From Bacillus sp. FJAT-42376 (GTDB taxonomy: Bacteria; Bacillota; Bacilli; Bacillales; Bacillaceae), in contig NZ_CP033906.1 of assembly GCF_003816055.1 (NCBI RefSeq), positions 3,720,001-3,784,000 of the forward strand: DNA of 64,000 bases, given 5' to 3'. Position 1 is the first letter of the stretch. Every line of letters begins with the position of its first letter. The notes under the pieces are model-generated. The model searched no databases. It had not been told where the DNA came from and saw only the letters and a list, made by a program, of their open reading frames with translations. Both the position numbers and the translations under genes were made by a program. Shown piece after piece: positions 4,114-42,318 of this stretch.

Positions 4114-4135
4114 TCTTTTTCATCTCCTAAATGAC

Positions 4136-5233: not shown

Positions 5234-5263
5234 AAAGAAAAAAGCTCTATTGGGTAAGAGCTC
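5234..5263 (-). terminator. degQ intrinsic terminator
   Basis: AGCTCT/AGAGCT arms (5243-5248 and 5257-5262) overlap the degQ stop codon and are followed on the minus strand by a T-rich tract. Confidence 0.75.
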
Positions 5264-5402
5264 AAGAAACCTTTACATAAGCGTATTTGTCATATTTATC
5301 AATGCTTTTGTTAATGGACTGCAAGGATTGTTTGGTTTCCCGAATTTCCTTTTCAAGCTGGTGAAGAATCTGTGTCAGTTCCTCGATCTTGTGCTGTGTC
5401 AT
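5262..5402 (-). CDS. degQ: DegQ, degradative enzyme regulation peptide
   Basis: A 46-codon gene, the same length as B. subtilis DegQ, was read directly from the minus strand. It begins MTQHKIEELTQILHQLEKEI and contains SLQSINKSIDKYDKYAY, closely resembling the DegQ segment with NINKSIDQYDKFAY. DegQ stimulates phosphotransfer from DegS to DegU and so raises exoenzyme and antibiotic production. AGGAG lies ten bases before the ATG. It is upstream of comQ, as in B. subtilis, and a ComA-type site lies about 120 bp upstream. Confidence 0.92.
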   Translation of the reverse strand: MTQHKIEELTQILHQLEKEIRETKQSLQSINKSIDKYDKYAYVKVS

Positions 5403-5519
5403 CGCTTCCACACTCCTTCTTTTGTAAAAGACCGGTACAAATGAAACCGTATGTCCTTTGTTAATTTCATTCTATAGGAGTGCAGACTGTTTGTAACCGA
5501 AAATAAGGCGAAATTCTTA

Positions 5520-5535
5520 GTGCGTGATACCGCAA
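5520..5535 (-). promoter_or_regulatory. Candidate ComA-binding site upstream of degQ
   Basis: On the minus strand TTGCGG-TATC-ACGCAC matches the ComA consensus TTGCGG-N4-CCGCAA at all six bases of the first half-site and four of the second. A further TTTCGC-like element lies about 14 bases downstream, resembling the third element of described ComA sites. Position 118-133 bp upstream of the degQ ATG is compatible with activation. Confidence 0.6.
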
Positions 5536-5627
5536 TTGTTTCAATAGTCCATTATGTTTATATTTTCCTGAAATCGAATAAGATTTTTATCCTATAAAAA
5601 ATGCTTTTTTGACATTGATTCCCCGTT

Positions 5628-5852
5628 TTACTCTGTTTTATTAGTTATATGGTCCTTGATGAGCTCATTGGCATATATTTCGGCTTTCGAACGAACCAAT
5701 GCTAATTCAGCAGGACCTTTGTATCGAACGGCTAAATCCTCTATCAGGTTTTCCGTGCAAACAAATTCTGCTTCTACCGCACTTCCTTCATAATGGAAGA
5801 CAAAGAGGAACACCAGCTTATTCTCCAATTCAAAGATTTTCGGTTTAAGCAA
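5628..5852 (-). CDS. Small hypothetical protein (74 aa)
   Basis: The product is a compact soluble protein starting MLKPKIFELENKLVFLF and ending DHITNKTE. It has no signal peptide, membrane segment or recognised motif. GGAGGGG lies a suitable distance before the ATG, supporting real translation. It stands alone between degQ and a plus-strand small gene. It could belong to one of the short Bacillales-only DUF families, but none is assigned with confidence. Confidence 0.65.
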   Translation of the reverse strand: MLKPKIFELENKLVFLFVFHYEGSAVEAEFVCTENLIEDLAVRYKGPAELALVRSKAEIYANELIKDHITNKTE

Positions 5853-6003
5853 AATTGACCCCTCCTAAAATTTGTATAATTCATAAAATTCGCTATTTTA
5901 CAGCAAAATTCCTTTTTAATCAGCTAAAGGAATTTTCTCTAAAAGGATAACGGACAAATTCTATGACATATACATCATTGATAAAGATCGGAGGTGAAGC
6001 TGC

Positions 6004-6300
6004 TTGCCACTGCAGCCCCCTATTTCAGTGACCGGCTACACAGATATGTTTCACTTAAGCGCAAGAGAGGCACTTTCTTTATTTGGAGATATGCAAAAAG
6101 TGCTCACCGCTATTTCTTCCTCATCCCAGTACGCTTATCAAATTCGAAGGAATGCTGAACATTCAAATACAAAGGAAGTTACAAGGCTAATCCGCCAATC
6201 GGGACTTTCCTCTGCTTTTGAGGTCACTTATACACCTGATGGAATTAATCTATCTCTTATAAAACCACACGGACATCTAACAGCACACCTCAGATGGTGA
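6004..6300 (+). CDS. Small hypothetical protein (98 aa), TTG start
   Basis: TTG at 6004 follows GGAGGTGAAGCTGC, a strong ribosome-binding site. The product contains TDMFHLSAREALSLFGDMQK, a serine-rich stretch, and a C-terminal SAFEVTYTPDGINLSLIKP segment that looks like a short beta hairpin. No family is recognised. It occupies the position where B. subtilis has yuzC, but no similarity to YuzC was seen. Confidence 0.65.
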   Translation: MPLQPPISVTGYTDMFHLSAREALSLFGDMQKVLTAISSSSQYAYQIRRNAEHSNTKEVTRLIRQSGLSSAFEVTYTPDGINLSLIKPHGHLTAHLRW

Positions 6301-6432
6301 TGGATCTATTTTTACCTTGGAGATCTATGTGTGACCCTGTTCATTTCCGGTGAGTTTCTTCTATTATTGTTCCCGCATGATAGGTTCTGGCACAGTTTCC
6401 TTTCCTCGAAAGGAGAGTATACCGTTTTTGCA

Positions 6433-6470
6433 AAAATAAAAAAACCGGCTCCTCAGAACCGGTTTTTTTG
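6433..6470. terminator. Bidirectional terminator
   Basis: AAAACCGG (6441-6448) pairs with CCGGTTTT (6459-6466), with T runs on both strands. It serves the minus-strand aldo/keto reductase gene and possibly the plus-strand 98-aa gene. Confidence 0.8.
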
Positions 6471-6471
6471 T

Positions 6472-7374
6472 TTAAGGTACTTCATGCCCCATTGAAGCAT
6501 GAAGAATGTCAAACCATTCCTGTCTATCGATTTTTAAATCCAGGGCGTTTACCGCTGACTGAATGCGGTTCACTTTTCCTGAACCGACGATTGGCATAAT
6601 GTTTGAAGGGTGCGCCAGCAGCCAGGCATATAGTACTTCATCAATGCCCTTCGCTCCAATTTGTTCGCCGATTTTGTCCAGGACCGGATGGAGACGTTTT
6701 GCTTTCTCATCTTCGCCTTTAAAAATCTGGCCTCCTGCAAGAGGTGACCATGCCATTGGAGGTATTCTCATTTCCTGGCATAAATCCAGCGTACCGTCTT
6801 CAAAATTTTCAAGCTGGTAGGCAGACAGTTCAATTTGATTCGTTACAAGCGGAAAGTCAAGATAGGACTGAAGCATATGGAACTGGGAATGCTTAAAGTT
6901 CGAAACACCGAAGTGACGGACTTTTCCTTCCTGTTTCAGTTTCGTAAATGCCTCCGCAACTTCTGCCGGATCCATAAATGGATCTGGACGGTGAATTAAA
7001 AGGACATCTATGTAATCGGTTTGGAGATTTTTCAGAGACTGCTCTGCTGATGCTACAATGTGTTTCTTGCTCGTATCGTAGTGTTTAATACGATTTTCAG
7101 GACGGTTCTCCGAAATAAGGGCAATGCCTGCTTTCGTAACAATCTCCATTTTATCTCTCAAGGAAGGTTTGAGCGCGAGCCCTTCCCCAAATAAAATATC
7201 ACTTGTATAAGAACCATAAATGTCTGCGTGGTCAAAAGTTGTAATACCAAGCTCAAGACATTGTTCGATTAGTTCTAAACGTTCTTCCTTACTCATATTC
7301 CAGTCTGCAAGACGCCATAATCCATGGATAATGCGCGTAAAGGATAAGTCTTCTGCGATTTGTATGCGTTCCAT
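6472..7374 (-). CDS. Aldo/keto reductase (YdhF-like)
   Basis: This 300-residue NADPH-dependent TIM-barrel oxidoreductase keeps the AKR tetrad: Asp and Tyr in TTFDHADIYGSYTSD, Lys in IVTKAGI and His in VLLIHRPDP. The segment GKVRHFGVSNF and the C-terminal MPIVGSGKVNRI cofactor loop are also typical. The substrate is unknown; relatives reduce assorted aldehydes and ketones. It is monocistronic with its own terminator. The start has a good AAAGGAGAA sequence nine bases upstream. A cre-like site overlaps the likely promoter. Confidence 0.9.
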   Translation of the reverse strand: MERIQIAEDLSFTRIIHGLWRLADWNMSKEERLELIEQCLELGITTFDHADIYGSYTSDILFGEGLALKPSLRDKMEIVTKAGIALISENRPENRIKHYDTSKKHIVASAEQSLKNLQTDYIDVLLIHRPDPFMDPAEVAEAFTKLKQEGKVRHFGVSNFKHSQFHMLQSYLDFPLVTNQIELSAYQLENFEDGTLDLCQEMRIPPMAWSPLAGGQIFKGEDEKAKRLHPVLDKIGEQIGAKGIDEVLYAWLLAHPSNIMPIVGSGKVNRIQSAVNALDLKIDRQEWFDILHASMGHEVP

Positions 7375-7410
7375 TGATCATTCTCCTTTCATCGTATATT
7401 GTACTTCAAT

Positions 7411-7424
7411 TTTGAGCGCTTTCA
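7411..7424 (-). promoter_or_regulatory. Candidate cre (CcpA) site at the aldo/keto reductase promoter
   Basis: The minus strand reads TGAAAGCGCTCAAA, matching the cre core TGAAAGCGCT but weak at the right end. It falls between a plausible -35 and a TACAAT -10 element, a position typical for repression. Confidence 0.45.
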
Positions 7425-7445
7425 CAGAACTTTGCTTATAGTCGC

Positions 7446-8669
7446 TTATTCTGTGCCCTCCATTAAATTCTCTGCCCAATGAATCGAATTTATGTAGCAA
7501 TCATAAGCTTCTTCCTCTGAAAGACCGCTTTCAGGAAGATCATATTCCCCAAGCTCGATTTTTCTTGACCATTTAAAGACAGCCAGCAAATCGTTTTCTG
7601 TTCCGGACAGGGCATCTTTTATAGGCTGTGTGAGAGGAAGATCATCAAGAATATCCTTCATCTCCCGGTGAAGAAGCGTATCAATCATCGAAAACATTCC
7701 GGTAAGCATGTAGGAAGAAGAGTGGCTTCTATCGGTTTGAACAGCAATCTGTTCACAAATTTTGGCCCGAATCAGCGATAATTTAATGACTTCATTCATC
7801 ATTGGATCGTTTTTCCTGTAAAAGCTTCTTACGGACATAATATAAATCCATTTTCTGATTTCTGTCAGTCCTAATAGGACAATTGCCTGCTGAATCGATT
7901 GTATGGACAGTGATGGGCGAAACGCGGGAGAGTTCATAAGTTTAAGGAGTTTATAGGAGAGAGATAAGTCCTGCTCTATATGATGAGCAACATAATCAAT
8001 CCTCGGCTCTTCCTCATTTAATTCTTTAATAATTTTAAAATAAGACAGGAGATTAAGCGGCATATCATGGCTCAACAGGATGACCGGCTTACTGAAAAAA
8101 TAGCCCTGAAATAGTTCGCAGCCCAATTCCTTCGTTTCCATAAACTGTTCTTGAGTTTCTACTTTTTCCGCAATATATTTGAGATTGTACTTTTTTAAAT
8201 AGTTCATCATTTCTCTCAGCTCTGACAGACTGGTTTTCTGCAAATCTACTTTTATGTAATCAGCCAAATACAAAATCTCCTGCGCTTCGCGGTTGATCAG
8301 TTCCTGATGAATAAAAAAGTCATCCAGCGCAACGGTGTAGCCCTTGCCTTTTAAGCTTTTGCAAATCTCGGCAAGCTCAGCTGAAACAGGAATATTTTCT
8401 AAAATTTCAATGACCACCGATTTCGGATCCAGATAATCAGGAATCCCCAGCCGGAGAAGATCTTCGGTAAAATTGATGAAACACGGCTTTCCTTCTGATA
8501 ACTCGTTTATCCCCATATTTAAAAAGCTATCCAATATTAAGTTCAATGTTGCTTCGTTTCCGTCTATGTCCGGAAAATAATTATTTTTGCTGTTTCGATA
8601 CAGCAGCTCGTACCCTTCCAAATTCCCCTTGCGGTCAAAAATCGGCTGCCTTCCAATAAATACTTTCAT
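7446..8669 (-). CDS. pdeH: EAL-HDOD protein, PdeH/YuxH-like c-di-GMP phosphodiesterase
   Basis: The product is 407 residues from the ATG at 8669 (MKVFIGRQPIFD); an ATG eight codons upstream is less likely. The N-terminal EAL domain has YELLYR, INFTE, IEILEN, LDDFF, YIKVDLQ, AEKVET and FQGYFFSKP, so metal-binding and catalytic acids are kept, although the usual DDFGTG loop is DDFF. The C-terminal half (about 200-400) is an HDOD domain with LLKLMNSPAFRP and QAIVLLGLTEIRKW. Architecture and position match B. subtilis PdeH (YuxH), which degrades cyclic di-GMP and so favours motility. Confidence 0.85.
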   Translation of the reverse strand: MKVFIGRQPIFDRKGNLEGYELLYRNSKNNYFPDIDGNEATLNLILDSFLNMGINELSEGKPCFINFTEDLLRLGIPDYLDPKSVVIEILENIPVSAELAEICKSLKGKGYTVALDDFFIHQELINREAQEILYLADYIKVDLQKTSLSELREMMNYLKKYNLKYIAEKVETQEQFMETKELGCELFQGYFFSKPVILLSHDMPLNLLSYFKIIKELNEEEPRIDYVAHHIEQDLSLSYKLLKLMNSPAFRPSLSIQSIQQAIVLLGLTEIRKWIYIMSVRSFYRKNDPMMNEVIKLSLIRAKICEQIAVQTDRSHSSSYMLTGMFSMIDTLLHREMKDILDDLPLTQPIKDALSGTENDLLAVFKWSRKIELGEYDLPESGLSEEEAYDCYINSIHWAENLMEGTE

Positions 8670-8871
8670 TTTACACTTTCCACCCCTGAACACGTGACTA
8701 TTTTCCCTTACTATATTACCTCAAAAAGCCTCATGTTAATGTCGAAATTTGTAAAAAATTAAAGAATCTTTTATTTCCCTCCAGATTGTTCACTCAGCCA
8801 GGCTTCACCCTGCCTCTGCTCAGCAGGATGAAGTCAGCAGGAAAAATGCTGCAGAAATAAAGAGAAGATGG

Positions 8872-8988
8872 TCAAGCTTTTATAACGTGCAAAATCAGCT
8901 TGATCCATCCATACAGGGCCACCCACAGCGGAACACTTAAGAGAGTTGCCCAGAGCATTCCTTTAAAAAAATTCCCTTCCCGGTTCAT
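8872..8988 (-). CDS. Small membrane peptide (38 aa)
   Basis: An ATG at 8988 preceded by GGGAGGTATTTCC opens a 38-codon frame, MNREGNFFKGMLW then a single hydrophobic helix (ATLLSVPLWVALYGWIKLIL) and a short basic tail HVIKA. The strong ribosome-binding site and clean one-helix layout suggest a real membrane microprotein. Function unknown. It lies between pdeH and the divergent hpaB-like gene. Confidence 0.6.
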   Translation of the reverse strand: MNREGNFFKGMLWATLLSVPLWVALYGWIKLILHVIKA

Positions 8989-9187
8989 GGAAATACCTCC
9001 CTTATAACCGTTAAAGGATAGCCATTCTATCCGTTTTTTATACTCTTATTATTCCTTTTCTCATTTCATGACAAAAGACTACATGATGACTCCTGCGCTG
9101 CCCCCTCACGTTCTTTTATGCACTGCATATAGTGAAAAGGGATTTAGGTATTTTCGTTCGATCAAACCTCTGTCGGGAGTGAAAACA

Positions 9188-10633
9188 TTGCCGGTCATTA
9201 CTGGAAAACAATACATCGATCGGTTGAATCAGCTGCATCCTGCAATATGGTACAAAGGAGAAAAAATGAAAAGCCCCGTTTCTGAGCACCCGGCTTATAA
9301 GGGCGCGATCCGGACAAAAGCGGAGTTATATGATTTGCAGCATCAGCCTGATCTAACAGACAGAATGACATACACTTGTCCGGATACGAAAGAAAAAACG
9401 GGTATGTCCTATTTAACACCAAAGACAAAGGAAGATTTGATCAGACGCCGGCTCATGATGACGGAGTGGGCGCGAAAAACACACGGGATGATGGGGCGCA
9501 CTCCAGATTATATGAACACGGCTGTAATGGCTCTTACAGCTTCTTCTTCCATTCTAAAGGACCAGGATGAAGAATTTTCCCAAAATCTCATCCGGCACTA
9601 CAACCGGGCTAAACAGGAGGATTTATCCTTCACGCACAGTTTTATTAATCCGCAAATGAACCGAGCTTCTTCCTATTATGACTCTAATCATCAGCCTGTC
9701 GCAGCGAAAGTCGTAAAGAAGACTTCCAGTGGCTTAGTGATAAAGGGAGCCAGGCTCCTCGCGACTGAAGGCGGCATGACAGATGAAGTTCTTGTCTTCC
9801 CGTCAGGGGGAGGAGCCCAGTCAAAAGAGTTCGCTTTTTCATTCTCCATCCCAAGCAATACAAAAGGATTGTCCTTTTTATGCCGGGAATCCTTCAGTCA
9901 GGGAGAATCTTCCTTTAATTACCCTTTGTCCTCCCGGTTTGAGGAAATGGACACCGTCATTATGTTTGATAATGTGCTTGTTCCATGGGACCGGGTCTTC
10001 TTTTATCACCGCCCGGATCTGGCAGGGAAAATGTTTAGTGAGAGTTCCTTCGCCCCTCAGGCTTTGCATCAAGTGATTAACCGGCAGCTGGTCAAACTTG
10101 AGTTTTTGCTTGGTCTTGCGCAGCTTCTCGTTTCCACGCTGAACGTGAGCGAATATCAGCATATTCAAGAGAAAATCGCAGACTTGATTATCGGAGTGGA
10201 AGTGCTGGAGGCCCTTCACCGGAAGTCGGAGAACACTGCTGAATTGGACCGGTGGGGAACCATGTGCCCTAACCTTCAGCCTCTTTATGCAGCCATCTGT
10301 CTTCATTCAAAGCTCTATCCCCGTTTTATTGAAATTCTCCAGCTGATTGGAGCGGGAGGGTTTATGACCATTGCTTCCGAAGAGGATTTTCATTCTGAAA
10401 TCGGTGAACAGGCAGAACACTATTTGCAGGGAACCGCGGTAGACGGAAAGATGAAGACCGCTCTATTCCGGCTTGCCTGGGACGCAACGATGAGCTCGTT
10501 TGGCGGAAGACAAACCCAATATGAGCGATTCTTTTTCGGTGATCCAGTCCGCCTTAAATCAAACCTTTATTCTTTTTATCCGCGCCAGCATATGATGGAC
10601 GAAGTGTTAAACTTTTTGGATTACAGGAATTAA
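9188..10633 (+). CDS. 4-hydroxyphenylacetate 3-monooxygenase oxygenase subunit (HpaB/YoaI-like)
   Basis: This FAD-dependent two-component phenol monooxygenase is about 481 residues from the preferred TTG start (MPVITGKQYIDRLNQ). GGGAG lies eight bases before that TTG, whereas the upstream ATG at 9068 has no ribosome-binding site. HpaB features include ARKTHGMMGRTPDYMNTAVM, the TEGGMTDEVLVFP region, FDNVLVPWDRVFFY and the C-terminal FGGRQTQYERFFFGDP. The family ortho-hydroxylates phenolic substrates using reduced flavin from a separate reductase; no reductase gene is adjacent, so the flavin source is elsewhere. Confidence 0.85.
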   Translation: MPVITGKQYIDRLNQLHPAIWYKGEKMKSPVSEHPAYKGAIRTKAELYDLQHQPDLTDRMTYTCPDTKEKTGMSYLTPKTKEDLIRRRLMMTEWARKTHGMMGRTPDYMNTAVMALTASSSILKDQDEEFSQNLIRHYNRAKQEDLSFTHSFINPQMNRASSYYDSNHQPVAAKVVKKTSSGLVIKGARLLATEGGMTDEVLVFPSGGGAQSKEFAFSFSIPSNTKGLSFLCRESFSQGESSFNYPLSSRFEEMDTVIMFDNVLVPWDRVFFYHRPDLAGKMFSESSFAPQALHQVINRQLVKLEFLLGLAQLLVSTLNVSEYQHIQEKIADLIIGVEVLEALHRKSENTAELDRWGTMCPNLQPLYAAICLHSKLYPRFIEILQLIGAGGFMTIASEEDFHSEIGEQAEHYLQGTAVDGKMKTALFRLAWDATMSSFGGRQTQYERFFFGDPVRLKSNLYSFYPRQHMMDEVLNFLDYRN

Positions 10634-10662
10634 AACAGGCGCTCATGCAGAGCGCCTGTTTT
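10632..10662. terminator. Bidirectional terminator
   Basis: AAAACAGGCGCT (10632-10643) pairs with AGCGCCTGTTTT (10651-10662), serving the convergent hpaB-like gene and yueH. Confidence 0.85.
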
Positions 10663-10897
10663 ACATTTCAGTTCTCCATTGCCTGATTTTACCCGCAAGC
10701 AGACTCGCCTCTTCCGGATCCGCCGCTTTTTGCAGAGATTGAAGAATCCTCTCGTCCACTTTTTCAAAAGGTTCGTCATAGCCTATCTTAATCGACCAAT
10801 GGTTATCCGGTATCGCAATCAAGTGATATTCTTCTTTTTTATTCTCATAGATATAAACTTTATCTGTATTCGCCATATGGGCTCTTCTAATTTTCAT
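10661..10897 (-). CDS. yueH: YueH family protein
   Basis: The 78-residue protein has the YueH signature, with VYIYENKKEEYHLIAIPD near the start, WSIKIGYDEP mid-way and a C-terminal LAGKIRQW helix. YueH is a small conserved protein of unknown function in bacilli. Neighbours yueG-like and yueF are conserved too. AAAGGA lies before the ATG at 10897. Confidence 0.8.
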   Translation of the reverse strand: MKIRRAHMANTDKVYIYENKKEEYHLIAIPDNHWSIKIGYDEPFEKVDERILQSLQKAADPEEASLLAGKIRQWRTEM

Positions 10898-10942
10898 GCC
10901 AGATCCTTTCCGGTAAAGGTCTTCGCTTGTTCTTAAAAATTA

Positions 10943-11104
10943 TTACTCCTTCAAAGCAGAGATGGGTTTCAATGTTTCTGCAGCCTGTAGGATTTTTAAA
11001 GTCACCTGATTTTTTTCGGGAGATTTTCTTTTCGAATGAAGCACTTTTTTCACTTCATCCTCATGGACACCGGCAAGCTTTGCGATACATATCGTATCAT
11101 GCAT
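10943..11104 (-). CDS. 53-aa LacI-type helix-turn-helix-only protein
   Basis: An ATG at 11104 with GAGAGAGGTGAT just upstream opens a 53-codon frame. The first 45 residues resemble a LacI-family DNA-binding head: TICIAKLAGVHEDEVKKVL followed by a QVTLKILQAAETL helix. No ligand-binding domain follows; the gene stops at SALKE. It could be a DNA-binding microprotein or a relic of a larger regulator, but the strong ribosome-binding site argues for expression. It lies 46 bp upstream of yueH on the same strand and is probably co-transcribed with it. Confidence 0.65.
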   Translation of the reverse strand: MHDTICIAKLAGVHEDEVKKVLHSKRKSPEKNQVTLKILQAAETLKPISALKE

Positions 11105-11227
11105 TCCGAATCACCTCTCTCCTCTAAATCGTACAAAAAATTCAGTATGGAATCAATCGATATGCTGTACAATCACCATGGCTCACCGTCTATTTTCTTT
11201 TTCTCTTTACATGTTCAGCCAGCAGCA

Positions 11228-11258
11228 AACGCGCCTTGCCAAAGGCAAGACGCACAAT
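11228..11258 (-). terminator. Hairpin after the GerPF-like gene
   Basis: CGTCTTGCC-TTT-GGCAAGGCG on the minus strand just after the yueG-like stop forms a strong stem, but the T tract after it is poor. It may terminate or stabilise the transcript. Confidence 0.45.
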
Positions 11259-11266
11259 AATTCAAG

Positions 11267-11482
11267 TCAGGCATTTAAAGCATCTGATTGATCATTTACA
11301 TCCGAATCATAATCATTGGTTATGTTCCGGCTGTTGTAAACTTGATTTCCGTCTCCATTCGAAAGAGCACCGGACCCCACCGCTGACTTTGACACACTTT
11401 TTGGAGAAATAGTGAAGGTATCTCCGACTTTAAATACTCCCGTCACACTTTCAATTTCCATTGGACCGACAAATGCAGGCAT
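11267..11482 (-). CDS. yueG: GerPA/GerPF-family spore germination protein (YueG-like)
   Basis: The 71-residue product has the GerPA/GerPF pattern: MPAFVGPMEIESVTGVFKVG, then DTFTISPKSVSKSAVGSGA, then a polar asparagine-rich tail. GerP proteins are made late in the mother cell and help germinants cross the spore coat. Start 11482 has AAGGGGTGA upstream; longer in-frame extensions lack support. It diverges from a group of other GerP-like genes across a 112-bp intergenic region, so the two sides probably share mother-cell control. Confidence 0.85.
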   Translation of the reverse strand: MPAFVGPMEIESVTGVFKVGDTFTISPKSVSKSAVGSGALSNGDGNQVYNSRNITNDYDSDVNDQSDALNA

Positions 11483-11594
11483 CTGCTCACCCCTTTTTGC
11501 TGATAGCCTATGCGTATTCCCTCTAAACGGTTCTAATGAACAATTGGGCTTGAGCGGGCATACACTGTAAAAGCGAACGGAAGAAGGTGACAAC

Positions 11595-11837
11595 GTGCCG
11601 ACGACGATCAACTTGTTTAATCTCAAAGTCAACAGCATCTCATGCAACGGTTCAGTCAACATCGGGGAGACCGTGCATAACAGCCACGTGGCCAGTTCAA
11701 AATCCACTGGTATGAACTCTTCCTTCGGCGATTTCTCACCTACTGATTCACTTATGGAAAACATTTATATTGATCCAGACCAAAATGATCAAGCGAATAT
11801 TGCCAACCTTGACGAATTTATCGCCAGCCAGACATGA
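11595..11837 (+). CDS. GerP-like spore protein, paralogue 1
   Basis: GTG at 11595 follows AAGAAGGTGA. The 80-residue product reads TINLFNLKVNSISCNGSVNI, then NSHVASSKSTGMNSSFGDFS and a polar acidic tail. It shares its layout with the next gene (INIFNIKVNG, SHTANIKSVG, GDFSP), so the two are tandem duplicates. The central GxxFxxGDFSP segment resembles GerPA/GerPF proteins and the start resembles GerPD. A role in the spore coat permeability layer is inferred. Confidence 0.7.
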   Translation: MPTTINLFNLKVNSISCNGSVNIGETVHNSHVASSKSTGMNSSFGDFSPTDSLMENIYIDPDQNDQANIANLDEFIASQT

Positions 11838-11849
11838 GGAGGTTCTTTC

Positions 11850-12092
11850 ATGCCCTATCAAATTAACATATTTAATATAAAGGTTAATGGAGTCGCTCAA
11901 AATGCCAATATCGATTTTGGAAACATCACGCAAAACAGCCATACGGCAAATATTAAGTCCGTTGGAGCAAGCTTTACAGCAGGAGACTTTTCACCCAACG
12001 CCTCTATAATGGGAAATGCGAACGCAGACCCGGATATTAGTGACCAGGATCAGATTGCGAACCCGTCTCTTCCGGTAACTACACAAATTTGA
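11850..12092 (+). CDS. GerP-like spore protein, paralogue 2
   Basis: The ATG at 11850 follows GAGGAGGTTCTTTC, 12 bp after the previous stop. The 80-residue product (PYQINIFNIKVNGVAQNANI, SHTANIKSVGASFTAGDFSP) is similar to paralogue 1 along its length. It is presumably co-transcribed with paralogue 1, hsp20 and the gerPC-like gene. Its function is inferred only from family resemblance and context. Confidence 0.7.
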   Translation: MPYQINIFNIKVNGVAQNANIDFGNITQNSHTANIKSVGASFTAGDFSPNASIMGNANADPDISDQDQIANPSLPVTTQI

Positions 12093-12146
12093 TCCCTTCC
12101 CCGCTGCCTAAGGCGGGGTACGGAATTTTAAGGGAGGGATAAAAAG

Positions 12147-12623
12147 ATGGACAAAGAAAAAATTCAAAAATGGCTCGACATGACGGAGAAATGTCAAAAA
12201 AATGATTTTTGGAAATCGATTTTCGAGACGGATTCAGACAATGGTTCGGCTTCCGGCCAGTCCCGCAGCAGCGAAACTTCTCTTTTCCCGAAGTATGATC
12301 TTTATTCCCATGAAGGGATCCTGTCGGTTCTGATTGAAATACCGGGTTTCAAGAAAGAAGATTTTTCAGTTACCCTCGACTCAACTAAAACCAAAATTTT
12401 ATTTAAAGGAGCCCTTCATCCTCCCTATTCCTTTCAGTACCGGGTCTCCCATGAGAGGCATTATGGAGAAGTGGAACGGGTGATTCCGCTTCCCTTCCAA
12501 GTCGAAAAAGAAACGGTCAAAAGCCAGTATGCATTCGGAGTCCTCGAACTGACCTTTAATAAGGCAGCAGAAGAGGCGGCTGTTTCCATAAATTTTGATG
12601 AAAGTCATACAGACGGGCAATAG
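12147..12623 (+). CDS. Hsp20/alpha-crystallin-like protein
   Basis: The 158-residue product carries an alpha-crystallin-like domain from about residue 48: KYDLYSHEGILSVLIEIPGF, KKEDFSVTL, a short loop, and a final beta strand FGVLELTFNK, close to the family GVLxLxxPK motif. The first 45 residues are polar and partly coiled. Small heat-shock-like proteins occur in spore coats (for example CotM and CotP), and the placement inside a GerP-like gene group suggests a coat-assembly role rather than a general heat-shock one. GGGAGGGAT precedes the ATG. Confidence 0.75.
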   Translation: MDKEKIQKWLDMTEKCQKNDFWKSIFETDSDNGSASGQSRSSETSLFPKYDLYSHEGILSVLIEIPGFKKEDFSVTLDSTKTKILFKGALHPPYSFQYRVSHERHYGEVERVIPLPFQVEKETVKSQYAFGVLELTFNKAAEEAAVSINFDESHTDGQ

Positions 12624-12665
12624 TTCCATATACTTAAGTAACTTCTCAATTGTGTGGGATCAGCC

Positions 12666-13169
12666 ATGAAATTCTGGAAAAAAAAACAAAAAGCTAAAGA
12701 CAAAGCTTTTCAGGAAAGACTGCTTAAATTGGACGAATCCATCCGGAACATGAAGGAAATCCTGACAAACATGGAGAGCCGCCCGGAACCAAAATCCCCC
12801 TTCCATTCTGATTCAAGCATCATAAAGAAAAAACAGGCAGAACTGGGCAACACTCTATCCGTTTTGCAAAACGAGCTCTCCTTTATTAAACATCATTTGC
12901 TTCATCATAAAGAAGACAGTCCCCCCTCATCGTCCGGACACATCCCTGTCATTTATATTCAAAGTCTTCATATTGAAAACGTGGATATGAAGGAAGTGGA
13001 TTTAAGCAACAATCTTGGACAGCTCGGAATAAAGGACCTGCCTGGGCAGTTGAATATCGGAACGGTCTACGGGAAGACCAAACCGGAAGAAACGAAAGAA
13101 CCTGAAGACGAAAAGAAAAAAGACCATAAAGACAATCCCACGATCTTTATCCAGCGCAAAAAGGACTGA
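12666..13169 (+). CDS. GerPC-like spore germination protein
   Basis: The product is about 167 residues from ATG 12666 (MKFWKKKQKAKD); a GTG at 12654 is an alternative. Residues 10-85 form a charged coiled coil. The C-terminal region has IPVIYIQSLHIENVDMKEV then NNLGQLGIKDLPGQLNIG, the signature of GerPC, which ends with a very similar NxGxLGIKxLxGQLNIG block. A lysine/glutamate-rich tail follows. It is last in the plus-strand GerP-like group and ends at a strong terminator. Confidence 0.8.
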   Translation: MKFWKKKQKAKDKAFQERLLKLDESIRNMKEILTNMESRPEPKSPFHSDSSIIKKKQAELGNTLSVLQNELSFIKHHLLHHKEDSPPSSSGHIPVIYIQSLHIENVDMKEVDLSNNLGQLGIKDLPGQLNIGTVYGKTKPEETKEPEDEKKKDHKDNPTIFIQRKKD

Positions 13170-36915: not shown

Positions 36916-37914
36916 ATGGTGAAAGAAGATACAAAGGTTTATGACATAACCATTATAGGAGGAGGTCCTGTAGGACTGTTCACCGCTTTTTACGGAGGGA
37001 TGAGACAAGCTAGTGTAAAGATCATCGAAAGTCTCCCTCAGCTCGGCGGTCAGCTATCTGCCCTCTATCCTGAAAAATACATATATGATGTAGCCGGTTT
37101 TCCAAAGGTACGTGCTCAAGAGTTAATCAATAACCTGAAAGAGCAAATGGCTATGTTTAATCCGGCAGTTGCCCTGGAACAGGCTGTAGAAGAAGTAGAG
37201 AAACAAGCGGACGGCGTATTCAAGCTGACCACCAACTCTGAAGTCCACTACACCAAAACGATTATCATTACGGCAGGAAATGGTGCATTCCAGCCCCGCC
37301 GCATTGAACTTGAAAATGCTGCACAATATGAAGGCAAAAACATGCACTATTTCATTGATGACCTGAATTCATTTGCGGGTAAGCGTGTCATGATCTGCGG
37401 AGGCGGAGATTCGGCTCTGGACTGGGCCCTCATGCTCGAGCCTATTGCGGAGAAAGTTACTCTTGTTCACCGCCGCGACAAATTCCGTGCCCACGAACAC
37501 AGCGTTGAGCAGCTGATGAATTCAAAAGTAGAAGTCATGACACCATTTATTCCTGAGGAAATTATCGGCGAAGACCGCATCGAACAAGTCGTCCTTCAGG
37601 AAGTAAAAGGCGAGCGCAAAGAAGTCATCGACATTGATGACTTAATCGTCAACTTCGGATTCGTTTCATCTCTGGGACCAATCAAAAACTGGGATTTAAA
37701 TATCGAAAAGAATAATATTGTGGTGAATTCAAAAATGGAAACAAACATCGAAGGCATCTACGCAGCCGGAGATATCTGTACGTATGACGGAAAAGTGAAG
37801 CTGATTGCCAGCGGATTCGGAGAAGCGCCGACTGCTGTCAATAACGCAAAAGCTTACATGGATCCTAAAGCGCGTGTACAGCCGCTTCACAGCACCAGTT
37901 TGTTTGAGAAATAA
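36916..37914 (+). CDS. yumC: Ferredoxin--NADP+ reductase YumC
   Basis: This 332-residue thioredoxin-reductase-like ferredoxin/flavodoxin NADP+ reductase has the FAD fold [20 protein letters not shown], the NADPH fold [16 protein letters not shown] and [11 protein letters not shown] near the C-terminus. The redox CxxC of true thioredoxin reductases is absent, as in YumC. B. subtilis YumC is essential and supplies reduced ferredoxin or flavodoxin. GGGGG precedes the ATG at 36916. Confidence 0.93.
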
Positions 37915-37918: not shown

Positions 37919-37950
37919 TAAGGCCGGTCATGAGACTGGCCTCATTTTTT
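37919..37950. terminator. yumC terminator
   Basis: AGGCCGGTCATGAGACTGGC then CTCATTTTTT; it also serves the convergent membrane gene. Confidence 0.8.
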
Positions 37951-38222
37951 TACCCCATTTGTAAAAAAACAAATCCAAAACAAGCCGCCACAAGCAAAAT
38001 GATGACTCCCGCTGCAATCAGCAGACCTTGCCCCACACGATTGTACCCGGCTCCAAAACTGACAAAAAGGGCGATTACGTGCAGAATGGGCCCTAAATAT
38101 AAATTTTGAAATCCCATAATCGCAACAATATAGAAGAAAAAACTTAAGAAAAATCCTATCCCCGCATTATCCAGGACGCCTCTCTTCTTCTCTCCGCCCT
38201 TATGCTGATTTTCTTCACTCAT
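37950..38222 (-). CDS. Hypothetical membrane protein (90 aa)
   Basis: The product has a charged head (MSEENQHKGGEKKRG), then three hydrophobic segments (FFLSFFFYIVAIMGF, HVIALFVSFGAGYN, GLLIAAGVIILLVAACFGF). No family is recognised. It lies 28 bp downstream of the Tes-like radical SAM gene on the same strand and may belong to that operon. Confidence 0.7.
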   Translation of the reverse strand: MSEENQHKGGEKKRGVLDNAGIGFFLSFFFYIVAIMGFQNLYLGPILHVIALFVSFGAGYNRVGQGLLIAAGVIILLVAACFGFVFLQMG

Positions 38223-38250: not shown

Positions 38251-39663
38251 TCATAGCCTGACTCCCGTTTCAATCTCAGCCTGTATCTCTTTTAGCAATT
38301 GCTCCTTGTCATCCCTATAAAACAAATTGTATGTATCAAAAGGAATAATTCTCCCATCAGGATGCGCAATATGAACACAAGATTTCTTAACCGACCTGAC
38401 ATCAAAATCATATGCATCCAAAAATTGCATGATAATCACCCTGAAAACATTGTCATAACCGATCTGTCCGGGAAGCACGACCTTAGGCAGGCAGCACAGC
38501 AAATCTTTCAGTGACAGAGCAGTCGACTGAGGCGAATGATTTAAAGAAAACAATTTGTAAATCATATTCCGGATATTCTCATCCTGCTCAAACACAATCG
38601 TATTGCTCTCTCCCTGAAGCAAAATATCCGGATCAATCATCCCGGTAAGCGGTGTTACTTTTCCATTCAGCTTTAGCGCATATCCCATGGCCAGGGAATC
38701 CGGGTGGCACGGTACCGGAATAATATCCTCCTGATTAAACACTTCCGACTGATCAATTATCTGCCTGCGTACCTCACTGAGCGTCAGTCTGTCCGTTTCA
38801 GGGTTATACTGTTCCAGTCTTCCGGCAGCCTGAATTGGCTGAAACGTAACGCCCCTGACACAGCGCTGCTCAAGCCCATACTGAATCACCTTACCGATTT
38901 CATGATCATTCAGGCCCTTCTTCAGCGTCACCACCAAAGTCGTCGAAAGATTCCATGCATTCAAATGCTCAATGGCCTTCCGCCTTGTTTCCCTTAAATC
39001 CACCCCTCTTAGTTCCAAAAGAGCTTCTTCTTCAAAGCTGTCAAACTGAAGGTAAATTTCGAAACCAGGTGCATAGGAGGCAAGCCTCTCCGCAAAAGAC
39101 GGATCATTCGCAATCCGCAGCCCATTTGTATTCAGCATAATGTGCTTAATCGGTTTGGATTTCACTAAATCCAAGATATCAAAAAACTGAGGATGAATCG
39201 TCGGTTCTCCGCCGCTGATCTGAACGATGTCAGGCTCCCGCTCATTTTTAATGATTGCATCCAGCATAAACTCGATCTCTTCCATAGAGCGAAAGCGCCC
39301 CTTATCAGGACCTGATTCCGCATAGCAAATCGGACACTTCAAATTGCACCGCTCCGTCACCTCAAGCACCGTCAAACAGCTGTGCTGCTCATGATCCGGA
39401 CAAAGCCCGCAGTCATACGGACATCCATACTTAATCGGCGTATTCCAGCGATACGGCATTTCCGAAGGCTTTATAAATTCGCGGCACTTTTTGTAATACT
39501 CCACATCCGTTGAAATCAGCACTTTCTCCCGTCCATGCTTCATACAATGCTTCACCAGATACACCTTTTCATCTTGAATAATGACCTTTGCCTCTACTTT
39601 TCTTAAACATGTAGAACAAATACTGTTCGTCAAATCATAAAATAAATACGGCCTGTTAGGCAT
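38251..39663 (-). CDS. Radical SAM protein of the Tes/MJ0619 family
   Basis: The 470-residue protein has a cysteine layout like that of archaeal tetraether synthase: C16/C19 (ICSTC), C40, C60, then CPYDCGLC with C96 (C81, C85, C88, C96), and the radical SAM triad C106/C110/C113 in TERCNLKCPICYAE. QISGGEPTIHPQF is the SAM-binding GGE motif. A double cysteine near 393 could ligate another cluster. Tes couples lipid chains end to end by forming carbon-carbon bonds. The start overlaps the upstream Lgt-like gene by 8 bp, so the two are translationally coupled. A role in lipid modification is inference. Confidence 0.8.
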   Translation of the reverse strand: MPNRPYLFYDLTNSICSTCLRKVEAKVIIQDEKVYLVKHCMKHGREKVLISTDVEYYKKCREFIKPSEMPYRWNTPIKYGCPYDCGLCPDHEQHSCLTVLEVTERCNLKCPICYAESGPDKGRFRSMEEIEFMLDAIIKNEREPDIVQISGGEPTIHPQFFDILDLVKSKPIKHIMLNTNGLRIANDPSFAERLASYAPGFEIYLQFDSFEEEALLELRGVDLRETRRKAIEHLNAWNLSTTLVVTLKKGLNDHEIGKVIQYGLEQRCVRGVTFQPIQAAGRLEQYNPETDRLTLSEVRRQIIDQSEVFNQEDIIPVPCHPDSLAMGYALKLNGKVTPLTGMIDPDILLQGESNTIVFEQDENIRNMIYKLFSLNHSPQSTALSLKDLLCCLPKVVLPGQIGYDNVFRVIIMQFLDAYDFDVRSVKKSCVHIAHPDGRIIPFDTYNLFYRDDKEQLLKEIQAEIETGVRL

Positions 39664-40402
39664 GAAACATTCCCCTCTCCGTCTGCGCCGATTTTCTCCT
39701 CATCAAGTTCGCATAATAAAGCATCCCGAAAAGACAAGCCCATTGCACATTGTTCATCATCAAAAACAAATCTGGCGTCGGTTTAATAAAATCAATCAAA
39801 AACCGGAATAGAAAGTACGAAAACATAAACACCTGAAAATAAAAACCTTCCCAATATCCGCCCCTCTTTTTTAAGGACCCATGCACACTAAGCAAAAGCA
39901 GCAAAAAAGCAATCTCATAAAGAGCCGTCGGATGGCGCCTGACCCCATCTCCCAAATCCATCCCTGTGATCCAAGACGTTTCCATTCCAAAAGTATGATC
40001 CTCCACCCCAGTCAGAAAGCAGCCAATCCGGCCAATCATCATCCCAACAATGAGAGGAAGAACAAAATCATCACCAGTCGAGGACTTCCATCCCACCAGC
40101 TTCTTTGTCAGCTCTACACCAATCAGTCCACCTATAAGCGCTCCCACGATCGTCTTCCCCTGTAAAAGGTATACAGGGTCATTCCAATGCTGGACAGTCG
40201 CTCCCGGGTCCTCCAGCCAATATAAAATTTTTGATCCGGCAGCAGCCCCCAAAACCACTCCCACTACAATCCACATCCCCGTATCCTTCGTCATCTCACT
40301 AGGACGCTTCGTCCAAAGATAAACCCGAAATCCGATAAAATATGCCAGACTCTCAAGGAGGAAATGAGGGTGAAGCCCAAATATGTATACCGGAAAATCC
40401 AT
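39656..40402 (-). CDS. Lgt-like (prolipoprotein diacylglyceryl transferase family) paralogue
   Basis: The 248-residue polytopic protein has the Lgt fold: GALIGGLIGVELTK, IGRIGCFLTGVEDHTFG, RRHPTALYE (the HPTQLYE motif) and RFLIDFIKPTP. Against E. coli Lgt, arginines equivalent to R143 and R239 are present (R125, R200), but the essential H103 is Val86 and N146 is Cys128. So it is probably not the housekeeping lipoprotein enzyme. Its gene overlaps the Tes-like gene and lies next to the tandem array. Confidence 0.82.
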   Translation of the reverse strand: MDFPVYIFGLHPHFLLESLAYFIGFRVYLWTKRPSEMTKDTGMWIVVGVVLGAAAGSKILYWLEDPGATVQHWNDPVYLLQGKTIVGALIGGLIGVELTKKLVGWKSSTGDDFVLPLIVGMMIGRIGCFLTGVEDHTFGMETSWITGMDLGDGVRRHPTALYEIAFLLLLLSVHGSLKKRGGYWEGFYFQVFMFSYFLFRFLIDFIKPTPDLFLMMNNVQWACLFGMLYYANLMRRKSAQTERGMFHA

Positions 40403-40495: not shown

Positions 40496-41625
40496 ATTCG
40501 GGACATCGCAGGATTTACTGGGGGTTTGGGGTATTGGAATATTTGGGGCGTTTCCGGACATCACCGGGTTTCCTGTGTCTTCCCGGACATCACAGGGTTG
40601 CGGCGGCCTTCCAGGACATTGTTCCTGGACATCCCAGGGTTGCGGCGGCCTTCCCGGACATCGCTGGGTTTCGCCGCCCTTCCCGGACATTGTTCCCGGA
40701 CATCACCAGGTTTTGGGGCCTTCCCGGACATTGTTCCCGGACATCAAACGGTTTCGGGGCCTTCCCGGACATTGTTCCCGGACATCACCGGGTTGCGGCG
40801 GCCTTCCCGGACATTGTTCCCGGACATCACCGGGTTGCGGCGGCCTTCCCGGACATTGTTCCCGGACATCGCACGGTTTCGGCGGGCTTCCCGGACATTG
40901 TTCCCGGACATCACCGGGTTGCGGCGGCCTTCCCGGACATTGTTCCCGGACATCACCAGGTTTTGGGGCCTTCCCGGACATTGTTCCCGGACATCACACG
41001 GTTTCGGCGGCCTTCCCGGACATTGTTCCCGCACATCACACGGTTGCGGCGGGCTTCCCGGACATTGTTCCCGGACATCACCTGGTTTTGGGGCCTTCCC
41101 GGACATTGTTCCCGGACATCACAGGGTTGCGGCGGCCTTCCCGGACATTGTTCCCGGACATCACCGGGTTTCGGCGGCCTTCCCGGACATTGTTCCCGGA
41201 CATCACAGGGTTGCGGCGGCCTTCCCGGACATTGTTCCCGGACATCACGGGGTTGCGGCGGCCTTCCCGGACATTGTTCCCGGACATCACCGGGTTGCGG
41301 CGGCCTTCCCGGACATTGTTCCCGGACATCACACGGTTTCGGGGCCTTCCCGGACATTGTTCCCGGACATCACAGGGTTTCGGCGGCCTTCCCGGACATT
41401 GTTCCCGGACATCACACGGTTTCGGGGCCTTCCCGGACATTGTTCCCGGGCATCACCTGGTTTTTGGGCCTTCCCAGACATTGTTCCCGCACATCACACG
41501 GATGCGGGGCCTTCCCGGACATTGTTCCCGGACATCAAACGGTTTCGGGGCCTTCCCGGACATTGTTCCCGGACATCACAGGGTTGCGGCGGCCTTCCCG
41601 GACATTGTTCCCGGACATCACAATG
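40496..41625 (+). repeat. GC-rich tandem array, about 24 units of 41-42 bp
   Basis: The core unit is TTCCCGGACATTG, TTCCCGGACATC, then a variable ACCGGGTTGCGGCGGCC-type tail; TTGCGGCGG variants give 42 bp and TTTTGGGG or TTTCGGGG variants 41 bp. About 24 units contain ATTGTTCC. The left edge carries shorter 29-bp units without that piece and increasingly decayed copies; the right edge ends in ACATCACAATGATTCCAG. Units abut with no unique spacers. Long open frames in several phases exist because the unit lacks stop codons; no start signal supports translation. It fills the gap between the lgt-like gene and the divergent transposase gene. Confidence 0.95.
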
Positions 41626-41748: not shown

Positions 41749-42318
41749 ATGCCAAGAGCAAGAAATTGGAGTCAGTATAAGGATGGGACCTATCATATTA
41801 TTTCAAGAGCTATTAGAAAATGGTCATTGTTTGAGGACTACCGTGATAAGGATCGCTATCTGACCATTTTGGAGGAAACTCAGCAGAAATATCCGTTCAA
41901 ACTACATGCGTTTTGCTTAATGAAAAACCACGTTCATCTCCTCATTGAAGTAATGGATCACCAGCCAAATGTTATCATGAAGCAGATTAATTTCCGATAT
42001 GCCCGGTACTTCAATTTCCGGCATAAGCACAAGGGGCATCTATTTGAAGGAAGGTATTTTGCTGAACCGATTAGTACCGTCTCTAAATTTTTAAACACTT
42101 CCCGATATATCCACTTAAATCCTTATAAAGCGCTGGCTGTTAAGCAGGCAGAAGATTATAAATGGAGCAGCTATCCTTATCTAGTAAAGAACCTTGTATG
42201 CCCCATCCTTTATAAAAACAAAACTCTAAGTCATTTTTCTCCTCCTTATGAAGAAAACTTCAAGCATTTCACAGAAGAATTAAAATGGCAGGATAAAGAA
42301 GAACTGCCTTCACTATGA
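41749..42318 (+). CDS. REP-associated-type Y1 transposase (RAYT-like)
   Basis: This 189-residue Transposase_17/HUH single-strand transposase has the HUH motif H61-V62-H63 in CLMKNHVHLLIEV, the catalytic tyrosine Y120 in TSRYIHLNPYKA, and the usual GHLFEGRYFAEPI and DYKWSSYPYL segments. RAYT enzymes cut and rejoin single strands at short palindromic repeats and are usually single-copy domesticated genes rather than part of an insertion sequence. AGGTGGAG precedes the ATG. No IS ends or target duplication are visible. The tandem array ends 124 bp upstream. Confidence 0.9.
   Translation: MPRARNWSQYKDGTYHIISRAIRKWSLFEDYRDKDRYLTILEETQQKYPFKLHAFCLMKNHVHLLIEVMDHQPNVIMKQINFRYARYFNFRHKHKGHLFEGRYFAEPISTVSKFLNTSRYIHLNPYKALAVKQAEDYKWSSYPYLVKNLVCPILYKNKTLSHFSPPYEENFKHFTEELKWQDKEELPSL

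What the first reader, a model, noticed from the sequence alone, without database searches (positions are those of the whole stretch)
38251..40402. Tes-like radical SAM enzyme coupled to an Lgt paralogue: a possible uncharacterised lipid-modification system
The two genes overlap by 8 bp. The radical SAM protein has the cysteine ladder of tetraether lipid synthase (C81, C85, C88, C96, then C106/C110/C113). The Lgt-like protein handles phospholipid-derived groups. Together they could build a modified or chain-coupled lipid or lipid-linked molecule in a bacterium. The 90-aa membrane protein downstream may be a third member.
Basis: partly seen in the sequence, partly recalled or inferred. Interest (0 to 1): 0.88.

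Follow-up and report, generated by a model that had tools for sequence, protein, structure and literature searches.

The report
Three-gene membrane lipid-tailoring operon
A bacterial gene trio, made of a relative of the enzyme that builds archaeal membrane-spanning lipids, an altered lipid-transfer enzyme and a small membrane protein with a conserved cysteine, recurs together in distant bacteria and probably tailors a lipid and attaches it to the small protein, though this has not been shown by experiment.

Summary
In detail: a 470-aa radical SAM gene overlaps a 248-aa Lgt-like gene by 8 bp. The pair is strikingly conserved. Of 398 genomes of the window's class, the same 27 have both genes, always within 0.5 kb. 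It recurs in Bacteroidota, Actinomycetota (about 29% identity) and other Bacillota. The radical SAM protein has the Tes fold but is not a Tes: below the Tes cut-off, without the C-terminal cysteines and Y459 of Tes, and outside the Tes clade. The Lgt-like protein keeps both catalytic arginines, lacks the essential His103 and has Cys for Asn146. The new clue is the third gene: most pair loci carry a small membrane protein whose last helix ends in a conserved Cys in lipobox-like geometry. A motif rule, written after seeing it, fires at 46 of 58 pair loci (one out of frame) and at 0 of 30 distinct Tes-like loci without Lgt. Best reading: the Lgt paralogue uses that Cys as lipid acceptor, and the radical SAM enzyme modifies the lipid chain. 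The chemistry is unproven.

The parts
39656..40402 (-). lgt2: Lgt paralogue, 248 aa, about 7 membrane helices, first gene of the operon
   Evidence: PF01790 85 bits; far below the Lgt equivalog cut-offs (50 against 334 and 37.5 against 118.9 bits); AF2 model pLDDT 84.7, only significant PDB match 5azb E. coli Lgt
40019..40030 (-). R-I-G-C of the G-R-I-G-C signature: R125 (= E. coli R143) to C128 (= N146 position)
   Evidence: R125, G127 and C128 invariant in 53 of 53 aligned Lgt2 proteins; N146 to Cys in 24 of 24 rSAM-linked sequences compared with E. coli Lgt
40145..40147 (-). V86, at the position of the essential His103 of E. coli Lgt
   Evidence: V, L or M in all 24 rSAM-linked Lgt2 proteins; no His in this helix of the window protein, so the alignment (ambiguous by a few residues) does not matter
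39803..39805 (-). R200 (= E. coli R239)
   Evidence: invariant in 53 of 53
38251..39663 (-). Tes-like radical SAM protein, 470 aa
   Evidence: PF04055 and PF23545; PDB 7tol E 1.9e-70 by sequence; AF2 pLDDT 84.3, pTM 0.87, 7tom TM 0.82
39325..39348 (-). radical SAM cluster motif C106-x3-C110-x2-C113
   Evidence: invariant in 49 of 49 aligned proteins
39391..39423 (-). N-terminal auxiliary cluster ligands C81, C85, C88, H91
   Evidence: 22 of 22 Bacilli members and 13 of 13 Tes; absent in the 2 mycobacterial members aligned
37950..38222 (-). third gene: 90-aa small membrane protein, proposed acceptor protein
   Evidence: profile hits in 50 of 94 pair loci, duplicates and truncated loci included; motif rule at 46 of 58 distinct pair loci, one out of frame, against 0 of 30 distinct controls; no Pfam or NCBIfam family over cut-off
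37980..37982 (-). C81 of the small protein, conserved Cys near the outer end of the last helix (VAAC-FG)
   Evidence: Cys in the aligned column in 41 of 45 full-length sequences; two more carry it one column away, one eleven columns away, and one is a piece of a broken gene whose other piece carries it

Best explanation
The three genes form one dedicated envelope-lipid unit. The Lgt paralogue, which keeps the two arginines that activate phosphatidylglycerol but has lost the usual essential histidine, transfers a phospholipid-derived (diacylglyceryl-type) group to the conserved cysteine at the outer end of the C-terminal membrane helix of the small protein. The Tes-like radical SAM enzyme acts from the cytoplasmic side and uses a 5'-deoxyadenosyl radical to modify an unactivated carbon of that lipid's chain, before or after transfer. 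SHOWN by sequence: the genes, linkage, co-occurrence, shared ancestry with Tes and Lgt, kept and lost residues, and the Cys-tail partner. INFERRED: that the Cys is the acceptor, that the donor is PG, that the radical acts on a lipid chain, and the order of steps. My confidence that the three are one functional unit acting at the membrane is about 0.85. The figure below is for the full mechanism.
For: Pair: the same 27 of 398 genomes of the class, within 0.5 kb in all 27; 20 of 20 genome-contig loci have Lgt2 beside it; also Persicobacter, Nonomuraea, Mycobacterium branderi, an M. avium plasmid and two other Bacillota genomes; distances of the two proteins correlate, r 0.94 over 57 loci and 0.79 over 51 Bacilli loci, 0 of 2000 permutations as high. 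Radical SAM: Tes fold and ladder, and Tes binds two lipids in hydrophobic pockets (PMC9433317, passages). Lgt2: R143, R239 and Y235 equivalents retained in 24 of 24; in E. coli Lgt they line the pocket that holds the diacylglyceryl moiety (PMC4728403, passages). Small protein: conserved Cys 16-23 residues after the last basic residue in 41 of 41 measured, near the 14-20 of 9 canonical lipobox candidates found by pattern; the same kind of tail on different N-terminal parts (Pro-rich, B-box-like) and two copies in three loci (L035, L140, L142), as expected of a recognised substrate element; motif rule 46 of 58 pair loci (one out of frame) against 0 of 30 distinct control loci and 4 in 275 kb of far flanks.
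Against: His103 is essential in E. coli Lgt (five substitutions fail, PMC4728403 passages) and is missing in Lgt2, so canonical chemistry cannot be assumed. The residues before the Cys (mostly N-A-A) are not a standard lipobox. The R143/C146 pattern also occurs in Lgt-like paralogues not linked to this radical SAM, so it is not a private signature. Lgt's active site faces outward while the radical SAM protein should be cytoplasmic. The Tes cysteines C455 and C470 are S and D in 22 of 22 Bacilli members, so Tes-like C-C coupling is uncertain. L130 (G943) has a Cys-tail protein and the radical SAM gene but no Lgt2 in its assembly, though the contig ends there. In L119 the Cys lies eleven columns from the family column, and the assignments in L117, L137, L139, L140 and L142 rest on reading the tails, not on a clearly significant profile hit. 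The motif rule was written after seeing the motif. No lipid or protein product is known.
Confidence: 0.4

Rival explanations
1. Lipid-only pathway: the radical SAM enzyme couples or cyclises acyl chains of membrane lipids as Tes does, the Lgt paralogue moves a diacylglyceryl group to a non-protein acceptor such as a glycolipid or head group, and the small protein is an accessory subunit whose Cys is structural or redox-active.
For: Tes homology and fold; Lgt2 has lost His103, whose HGGL region is proposed to bind the lipobox peptide (PMC4728403 passages); a genome with the pair, G839, also has two Tes-like proteins inside a fatty-acid-synthase-type cluster.
Against: The Cys-tail proteins are more diverse than the enzymes yet keep the Cys, and occur in two copies in three loci with different N-terminal parts elsewhere, which fits a substrate better than a subunit.
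Confidence: 0.27
2. Radical SAM protein maturation: the radical SAM enzyme modifies the small protein itself (for example a thioether or C-C link at the Cys), and the Lgt paralogue anchors or presents it.
For: Radical SAM maturases with small dedicated target proteins are a known kind (Haft and Basu 2011, seen only as a reference entry); conserved Cys.
Against: Pfam and NCBIfam scans gave the radical SAM core and Tes/TrsS models, no peptide-maturase model over its cut-off among the 25 of 58 NCBIfam matches shown; the Cys is predicted near the outer face, away from the cytoplasm (read from the charges).
Confidence: 0.18
3. Bacterial Tes: the pair makes membrane-spanning lipids in Bacillaceae.
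For: Tes fold and rubredoxin, N-terminal and radical SAM cluster ligands all kept.
Against: Below the Tes equivalog cut-off (290 against 450 bits; MJ0619 itself scores 744); C455, C470 and Y459 not kept; Tes-only clade with the window family rejected, p 0.013; a stretch of Tes before its HQHCG motif has no counterpart.
Confidence: 0.08
4. Redox-cofactor system like TrsS, that is, part of a molybdenum-hydroxylase or selenium cassette.
For: TrsS is the best NCBIfam match (338 bits).
Against: Below its cut-off of 490, while five TrsS-type relatives score 654-707; their loci carry hydroxylase-like, methyltransferase-like, C_GCAxxG-type and AMP-ligase genes (mostly named by eye) and neither Lgt nor a Cys-tail protein; I saw none of these at the pair loci printed.
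Confidence: 0.03

Closest known systems
Tetraether lipid synthase Tes / GDGT-MAS (MJ0619, PDB 7tol, 7tom; NF045702)
   Same: Overall fold, rubredoxin-type site, N-terminal [4Fe-4S] ligands including the His, radical SAM motif, Met439 equivalent
   Different: C-terminal cysteines re-wired (C338 variable, C455 to S, C470 to D; C319, C390, C391, C429 conserved instead), Y459 to I, a Tes stretch missing, outside the Tes clade, linked to Lgt and a Cys-tail protein
Radical SAM (seleno)protein TrsS (NF045646)
   Same: Nearest NCBIfam model; shares C96
   Different: Below cut-off where five TrsS-type relatives are over it; different genome neighbourhood
Lgt, prolipoprotein diacylglyceryl transferase (E. 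coli, PDB 5azb; TIGR00544, NF000778)
   Same: Fold, R143, R239, Y235, G154, and a topology that looks the same from the loop charges
   Different: No His103, Asn146 to Cys, far below equivalog cut-offs; the genome has a separate canonical Lgt
Second lgt with lit2 on copper-resistance elements
   Same: An extra lgt with its own partner gene (PMC8689077, passage)
   Different: Partner is Lit, not a radical SAM protein; that Lgt was not compared here
C-terminal tail-recognising systems (sortases, MYXO-CTERM and the like; recalled, not looked up)
   Same: Small variable proteins sharing a short C-terminal membrane tail next to the processing enzymes
   Different: Here the tail carries a conserved Cys in the helix and the neighbours are an Lgt paralogue and a Tes-like radical SAM protein

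Membership tests
Tes (tetraether lipid synthase) | Score over the curated NCBIfam cut-off NF045702 (450 bits) | tested here: not met
   290.4 bits; control MJ0619 (P0241) 744.4
Tes (tetraether lipid synthase) | Rubredoxin, N-terminal and radical SAM cluster ligands | tested here: met
   C16/C19/C40/H43, C81/C85/C88/H91, C106/C110/C113 (ligands from PMC9433317 passages)
Tes (tetraether lipid synthase) | C-terminal cluster: the three Cys invariant in 13 Tes rows (C338, C455, C470; taken here as ligands, the passages I read name only Met439) | tested here: not met
   Met kept 22 of 22; C455 is S and C470 is D in 22 of 22; C338 is C in 14, S in 6 and A in 2 of 22, S in the window; the neighbouring C429 could stand in for C455
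Tes (tetraether lipid synthase) | Tyr459, strictly conserved in archaeal Tes though not essential for activity | tested here: not met
   I in 22 of 22 Bacilli members, Y in 13 of 13 Tes
Tes (tetraether lipid synthase) | Falls in the Tes clade | tested here: not met
   15 Tes rows are one clade at SH-aLRT 100; exclusive clade with Bacilli plus Persicobacter members rejected, p-AU 0.013, quick tree, rows named after seeing it
Tes (tetraether lipid synthase) | Couples two saturated lipid chain ends | not testable with these tools
   needs enzyme assay
TrsS | Score over NF045646 cut-off (490 bits) | tested here: not met
   338.4 bits; five TrsS-type relatives 654-707
TrsS | Typical neighbours (hydroxylase-like, methyltransferase, C_GCAxxG-type protein, AMP-ligase; read off these loci, names by eye except the AMP-ligase and Fe-S oxidoreductase of L121) | tested here: not met
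   not seen in the pair loci printed; seen in L121, L122, L125, L133, L134
Lgt superfamily (PF01790) | Score over gathering cut-off (24.9 bits) | tested here: met
   84.7 bits
Canonical Lgt | Equivalog cut-offs (334 and 118.9 bits) | tested here: not met
   50.5 and 37.5 bits
Canonical Lgt | Essential His103, and Asn146 of the signature motif | tested here: not met
   V/L/M and Cys in 24 of 24 rSAM-linked sequences; own canonical Lgt has H and N (L024)
Canonical Lgt | Catalytic Arg143 and Arg239 | tested here: met
   24 of 24, 53 of 53
Bacterial lipoprotein (small protein) | N-terminal signal peptide with lipobox [LVI][ASTVI][GAS]C | tested here: not met
   The Cys lies in the C-terminal helix and most members have another residue at -3
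Bacterial lipoprotein (small protein) | Cys carries a diacylglyceryl group | not testable with these tools
   needs mass spectrometry
Viperin-type anti-phage protein | Full-length pVip match | tested here: not met
   only the radical SAM core matches, residues 101-217, 46 bits

The most novel reading that the evidence does not exclude
A dedicated protein-lipidation system with a C-terminal signal: the Lgt paralogue recognises an inverted, C-terminal lipobox-like helix and attaches a phospholipid-derived group, and a Tes-like radical SAM enzyme joins that lipid's chain end to another lipid, giving a protein covalently held by a cross-linked or membrane-spanning lipid in bacteria with ordinary ester lipids.
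Probability: 0.12. Interest if true: 0.95.

Novelty: new variant of a known kind. Interest (0 to 1): 0.76.

Why it matters
The Tes authors note bacterial relatives in organisms not known to make biphytanyl chains and leave their reactions open (PMC9433317, passages). This cassette supplies what that question lacked: an enzyme partner and a candidate protein substrate with one conserved residue to test. If right, it adds a C-terminal route of protein lipidation and a new use of carbon-hydrogen activation in bacteria. It also warns against naming these proteins pterin methyltransferase or lipoprotein transferase by automatic annotation, as several sources do.

Tried and rejected
Considered and rejected: that the protein is a Tes or a TrsS; that it is a viperin or defence protein (only core matches); phage carriage (no match at E 1e-20 in 50,697 phage records); that the H103/N146 change is private to this system (other Lgt paralogues share the Cys); a second copy of the small protein in the window's genome (one match up to E 10).

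Led nowhere or inconclusive: I expected G943, whose radical SAM protein groups with the actinobacterial ones and sits beside a Cys-tail protein (L130), to have Lgt2. The contig ends there and the genome shows only another Lgt paralogue. One clade of all Lgt-linked radical SAM proteins is rejected without L130 (p 2e-11) and not rejected with it (p 0.496); L130 was added after seeing the tree. The promoter and terminator scan gave 7 promoter-like sites against 4.1 expected and 4 terminator-like against 2.6. The tree is a quick search with long branches flagged. In one search the row meant as the own canonical Lgt was a wrong ORF; one search gives the right one. Literature: no paper describing this pair was found; the library holds open-licence papers only. 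Of the four papers I opened passages of two (PMC7641849, PMC8939145), both unrelated; the other two (PMC3877243, PMC12010503) I saw as a listing only.

Rows dropped before counts: loci that repeat a genome or hold a truncated flank were collapsed to 58 or 57; L020 and L118 were left out of the distance test. One search counted 43 controls; on recheck 12 of these repeat a genome and one (L090) is a truncated copy of a pair locus, so one search gives 30 distinct controls, 74 kb, still 0 hits. L130 and L096 (one locus) were left out of the controls because it carries a Cys-tail protein, and L062/L126 because they are the decayed pair. One of the 46 motif hits (L117) is an ORF in another frame; the likelier small ORF there, 8442-8729, ends in Cys-Phe. 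The 12 rule misses (L006, L013, L020, L028, L030, L044, L047, L049, L050, L128, L139, L142) each have a Cys-tail ORF by profile or by eye, the one for L128 being a 48-aa piece in its duplicate L052.
Full report
OBSERVATION. A 90-aa membrane ORF lies downstream at 37950..38222. Pfam confirms PF04055 plus the HMPTM zinc ribbon PF23545 in the first and PF01790 in the second; the 90-aa protein has no family. The genome has one further Lgt at C1:3956442-3957182, 275 bits against 84 for this one; it is the canonical one, with His and Asn at the two marker positions (L024).

THE PAIR IS A REAL UNIT. Among 398 genomes of the window's class (Bacilli, judging by its named relatives) a close radical SAM relative (E below 1e-200) was found in 27 and the Lgt paralogue (E below 1e-20) in 27. 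They are the same 27 genomes, and in each the two lie on one strand within 0.5 kb (compared by hand from the coordinates). Three further genomes had weaker radical SAM matches. Two (G617, G562) are TrsS by score and neighbours. One (G348) is a decayed copy with two in-frame stops next to a canonical lgt. Distribution is patchy: 10 of 299 genomes of the window's order. Flanking genes beyond the unit differ between genera, judged by eye.

THE PAIR CROSSES PHYLA. Among plasmid records there were 10 matches to the radical SAM protein. Four have an Lgt-like gene beside it or close to it: Persicobacter psychrovividus (Bacteroidota, 59% and 41% identity), Nonomuraea (29%), Mycobacterium branderi (two small genes between) and an M. 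avium plasmid (likewise). Of the rest, Mycolicibacterium vanbaalenii and Salinirubellus have a methyltransferase instead, and four haloarchaeal records were not opened. In the phylum, 33 of 398 genomes have a relative at E below 1e-30, two of them in the class. Two others at 41-42% identity, G839 and G957, have the Lgt paralogue downstream instead of upstream, directly in G839 and after two further genes in G957. G948 (35%) has a methyltransferase next to it and no Lgt within 3.5 kb. Pairwise distances of the two proteins go together: r 0.94 over 57 loci, 0.79 over the 51 Bacilli loci, 0 of 2000 permutations as high.

THE RADICAL SAM PROTEIN. By sequence its closest solved relative is Tes, 7tol, E 1.9e-70. 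The AlphaFold2 model (pLDDT 84.3, pTM 0.87; residues 370-400 poor) matches 7tom at TM 0.82 and 7tol at 0.79; the next hit has E 8e-11. Ligands of the rubredoxin site, the N-terminal auxiliary cluster and the radical SAM cluster, as listed in PMC9433317 (passages read), are all present. The C-terminal cluster region is re-wired: the Tes cysteines C455 and C470 are Ser and Asp in 22 of 22 Bacilli members, C338 is variable, Met439 is kept, and C319, C390, C391 and C429, not conserved in Tes, are invariant in those 22. Tyr459 is Ile. The two mycobacterial members aligned lack the N-terminal cluster ligands. It scores 290 bits against a cut-off of 450 for Tes and 338 against 490 for TrsS; with the same models MJ0619 scores 744 for Tes and five TrsS-type relatives 654-707 for TrsS, while the G839 and G957 relatives also fall below both. 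In the tree the 15 Tes proteins form their own clade; forcing Bacilli plus Persicobacter members together with Tes alone is rejected at p 0.013, the rows having been named after the tree was seen. So it works on a Tes scaffold but is not a Tes.

THE LGT PARALOGUE. The model (pLDDT 84.7) has one significant PDB match, E. coli Lgt 5azb. Residues that line the pocket for the diacylglyceryl part of PG in E. coli Lgt (R143, R239, Y235; PMC4728403 passages) are kept in 24 of 24 sequences. The essential His103 is V, L or M, and Asn146 of the signature motif is Cys. In a larger alignment, 53 sequences chosen from the 120 listed hits and from loci, R125, C128 and R200 are invariant. Against over-reading: Lgt-like paralogues that are not next to this radical SAM protein (L146-L148, L153-L156, L158) also have Cys at that place, with Q, Y or F at 103. 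Charges in the loops suggest the same topology as Lgt, active site outward (read from the sequence, not computed).

THE THIRD GENE. The small membrane proteins are very diverse, but their last helix ends in a Cys, typically N-A-A-C-F-G in Bacilli. Of 45 full-length members, 41 have the Cys in the aligned column, L042 and L043 carry it one column away, L119 eleven columns away, and one is a piece of a broken gene whose other piece has it. In the 41 it lies 16-23 residues after the last basic residue and 4-15 from the end; nine canonical lipobox candidates picked by pattern from the fetched loci measure 14-20. In Nonomuraea and the two mycobacterial loci a shared tail (G-W-A-L-x-S-x-x-x-x-G-x-C-T-G-x-N-P, with small variations) sits on Pro-rich or short proteins, two in tandem in both mycobacterial loci. 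In L020, L055, L056, L127 and L129 a Cys tail sits on a B-box-like zinc-finger protein upstream of lgt2 (by eye; for L127 B-box 19.9 bits, below the cut-off of 24.1). Persicobacter has a 59-aa version downstream. A rule that uses no alignment found such an ORF within 1.3 kb at 46 of 58 distinct pair loci (one of the 46 in another frame), at 0 of 30 distinct Tes-like loci without Lgt (74 kb of flank), and 4 times in 275 kb of far flank. The rule was written after seeing the motif, so the controls carry the weight. No Pfam or NCBIfam model covers the ten of these proteins that I scanned or the window's.

MECHANISM. The conserved Cys sits where a lipoprotein Cys sits relative to the membrane, next to an Lgt paralogue with intact donor-side arginines but without the essential histidine. 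The simplest reading is that this Cys is the acceptor, and that the Tes-like enzyme tailors the lipid chain. The order of steps, donor and product are unknown. The main weakness is the missing His103. The rivals are a lipid-only pathway and direct radical modification of the small protein.

NOVELTY. No description of the pair or of the Cys-tail proteins was found. PMC9433317 states that bacterial relatives exist in organisms not known to make biphytanyl chains; PMC8941075 reports 456 bacterial Tes homologues and proposes brGDGT synthesis (passages read of both). I rate it a new variant of known enzyme kinds joined in a unit that I did not find described.

Noticed in passing
window 40651-41622: An array of about 23 copies of a 42-bp GC-rich repeat lies upstream of lgt2. 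The same unit forms arrays at five places in the genome (72 matches with up to 3 mismatches, 0 in the reversed-pattern control), one of them about 2.3 kb from the canonical lgt gene.
   Followed up: partly
window 41749-42318 (+): An IS200-like (Y1) transposase, PF01797, sits right beside the repeat array, a layout like REP-associated transposases (the comparison is recalled).
   Followed up: no
L118 (G839), 3037-12817: Two tandem Tes-like radical SAM proteins (below the Tes and TrsS cut-offs) inside a fatty-acid-synthase-type cluster (ketosynthases, reductases, ACP, dehydratase-like, nitroreductase, hydrolase; mostly named by eye), without Lgt.
   Followed up: partly
L126 / L062 (G348): A decayed radical SAM copy with two in-frame stops and a possible remnant of the small gene (profile E 0.097) lies next to a canonical lgt, as if the unit had been lost there.
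   Followed up: partly
L119 (G957) 10615-11779: Between radical SAM and Lgt2 lie an ICMT/phospholipid methyltransferase-type gene (PF04140, 51 bits) and a DUF4395 gene.
   Followed up: no
L130 (G943), 38-2171: A 181-aa protein with a C-terminal Cys-tail helix directly upstream of a radical SAM protein that groups with the actinobacterial ones; no Lgt2 found in the assembly.
   Followed up: yes
G348, G855, G839, G957, G943, G948 (L146-L148, L153-L156, L158): Further Lgt-like paralogues with Cys for Asn146 and Q, Y or F for His103, not next to this radical SAM protein; function unknown.
   Followed up: no
window 36916-37914 (+): A pyridine-nucleotide oxidoreductase that looks like a ferredoxin-NADP reductase (named by eye) converges on the operon; I did not see it at the other pair loci printed.
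   Followed up: no
L139 (NZ_LT559118.1): The Nonomuraea record with the pair is filed as a plasmid but is 11.85 Mb long, so it is probably the chromosome.
   Followed up: no
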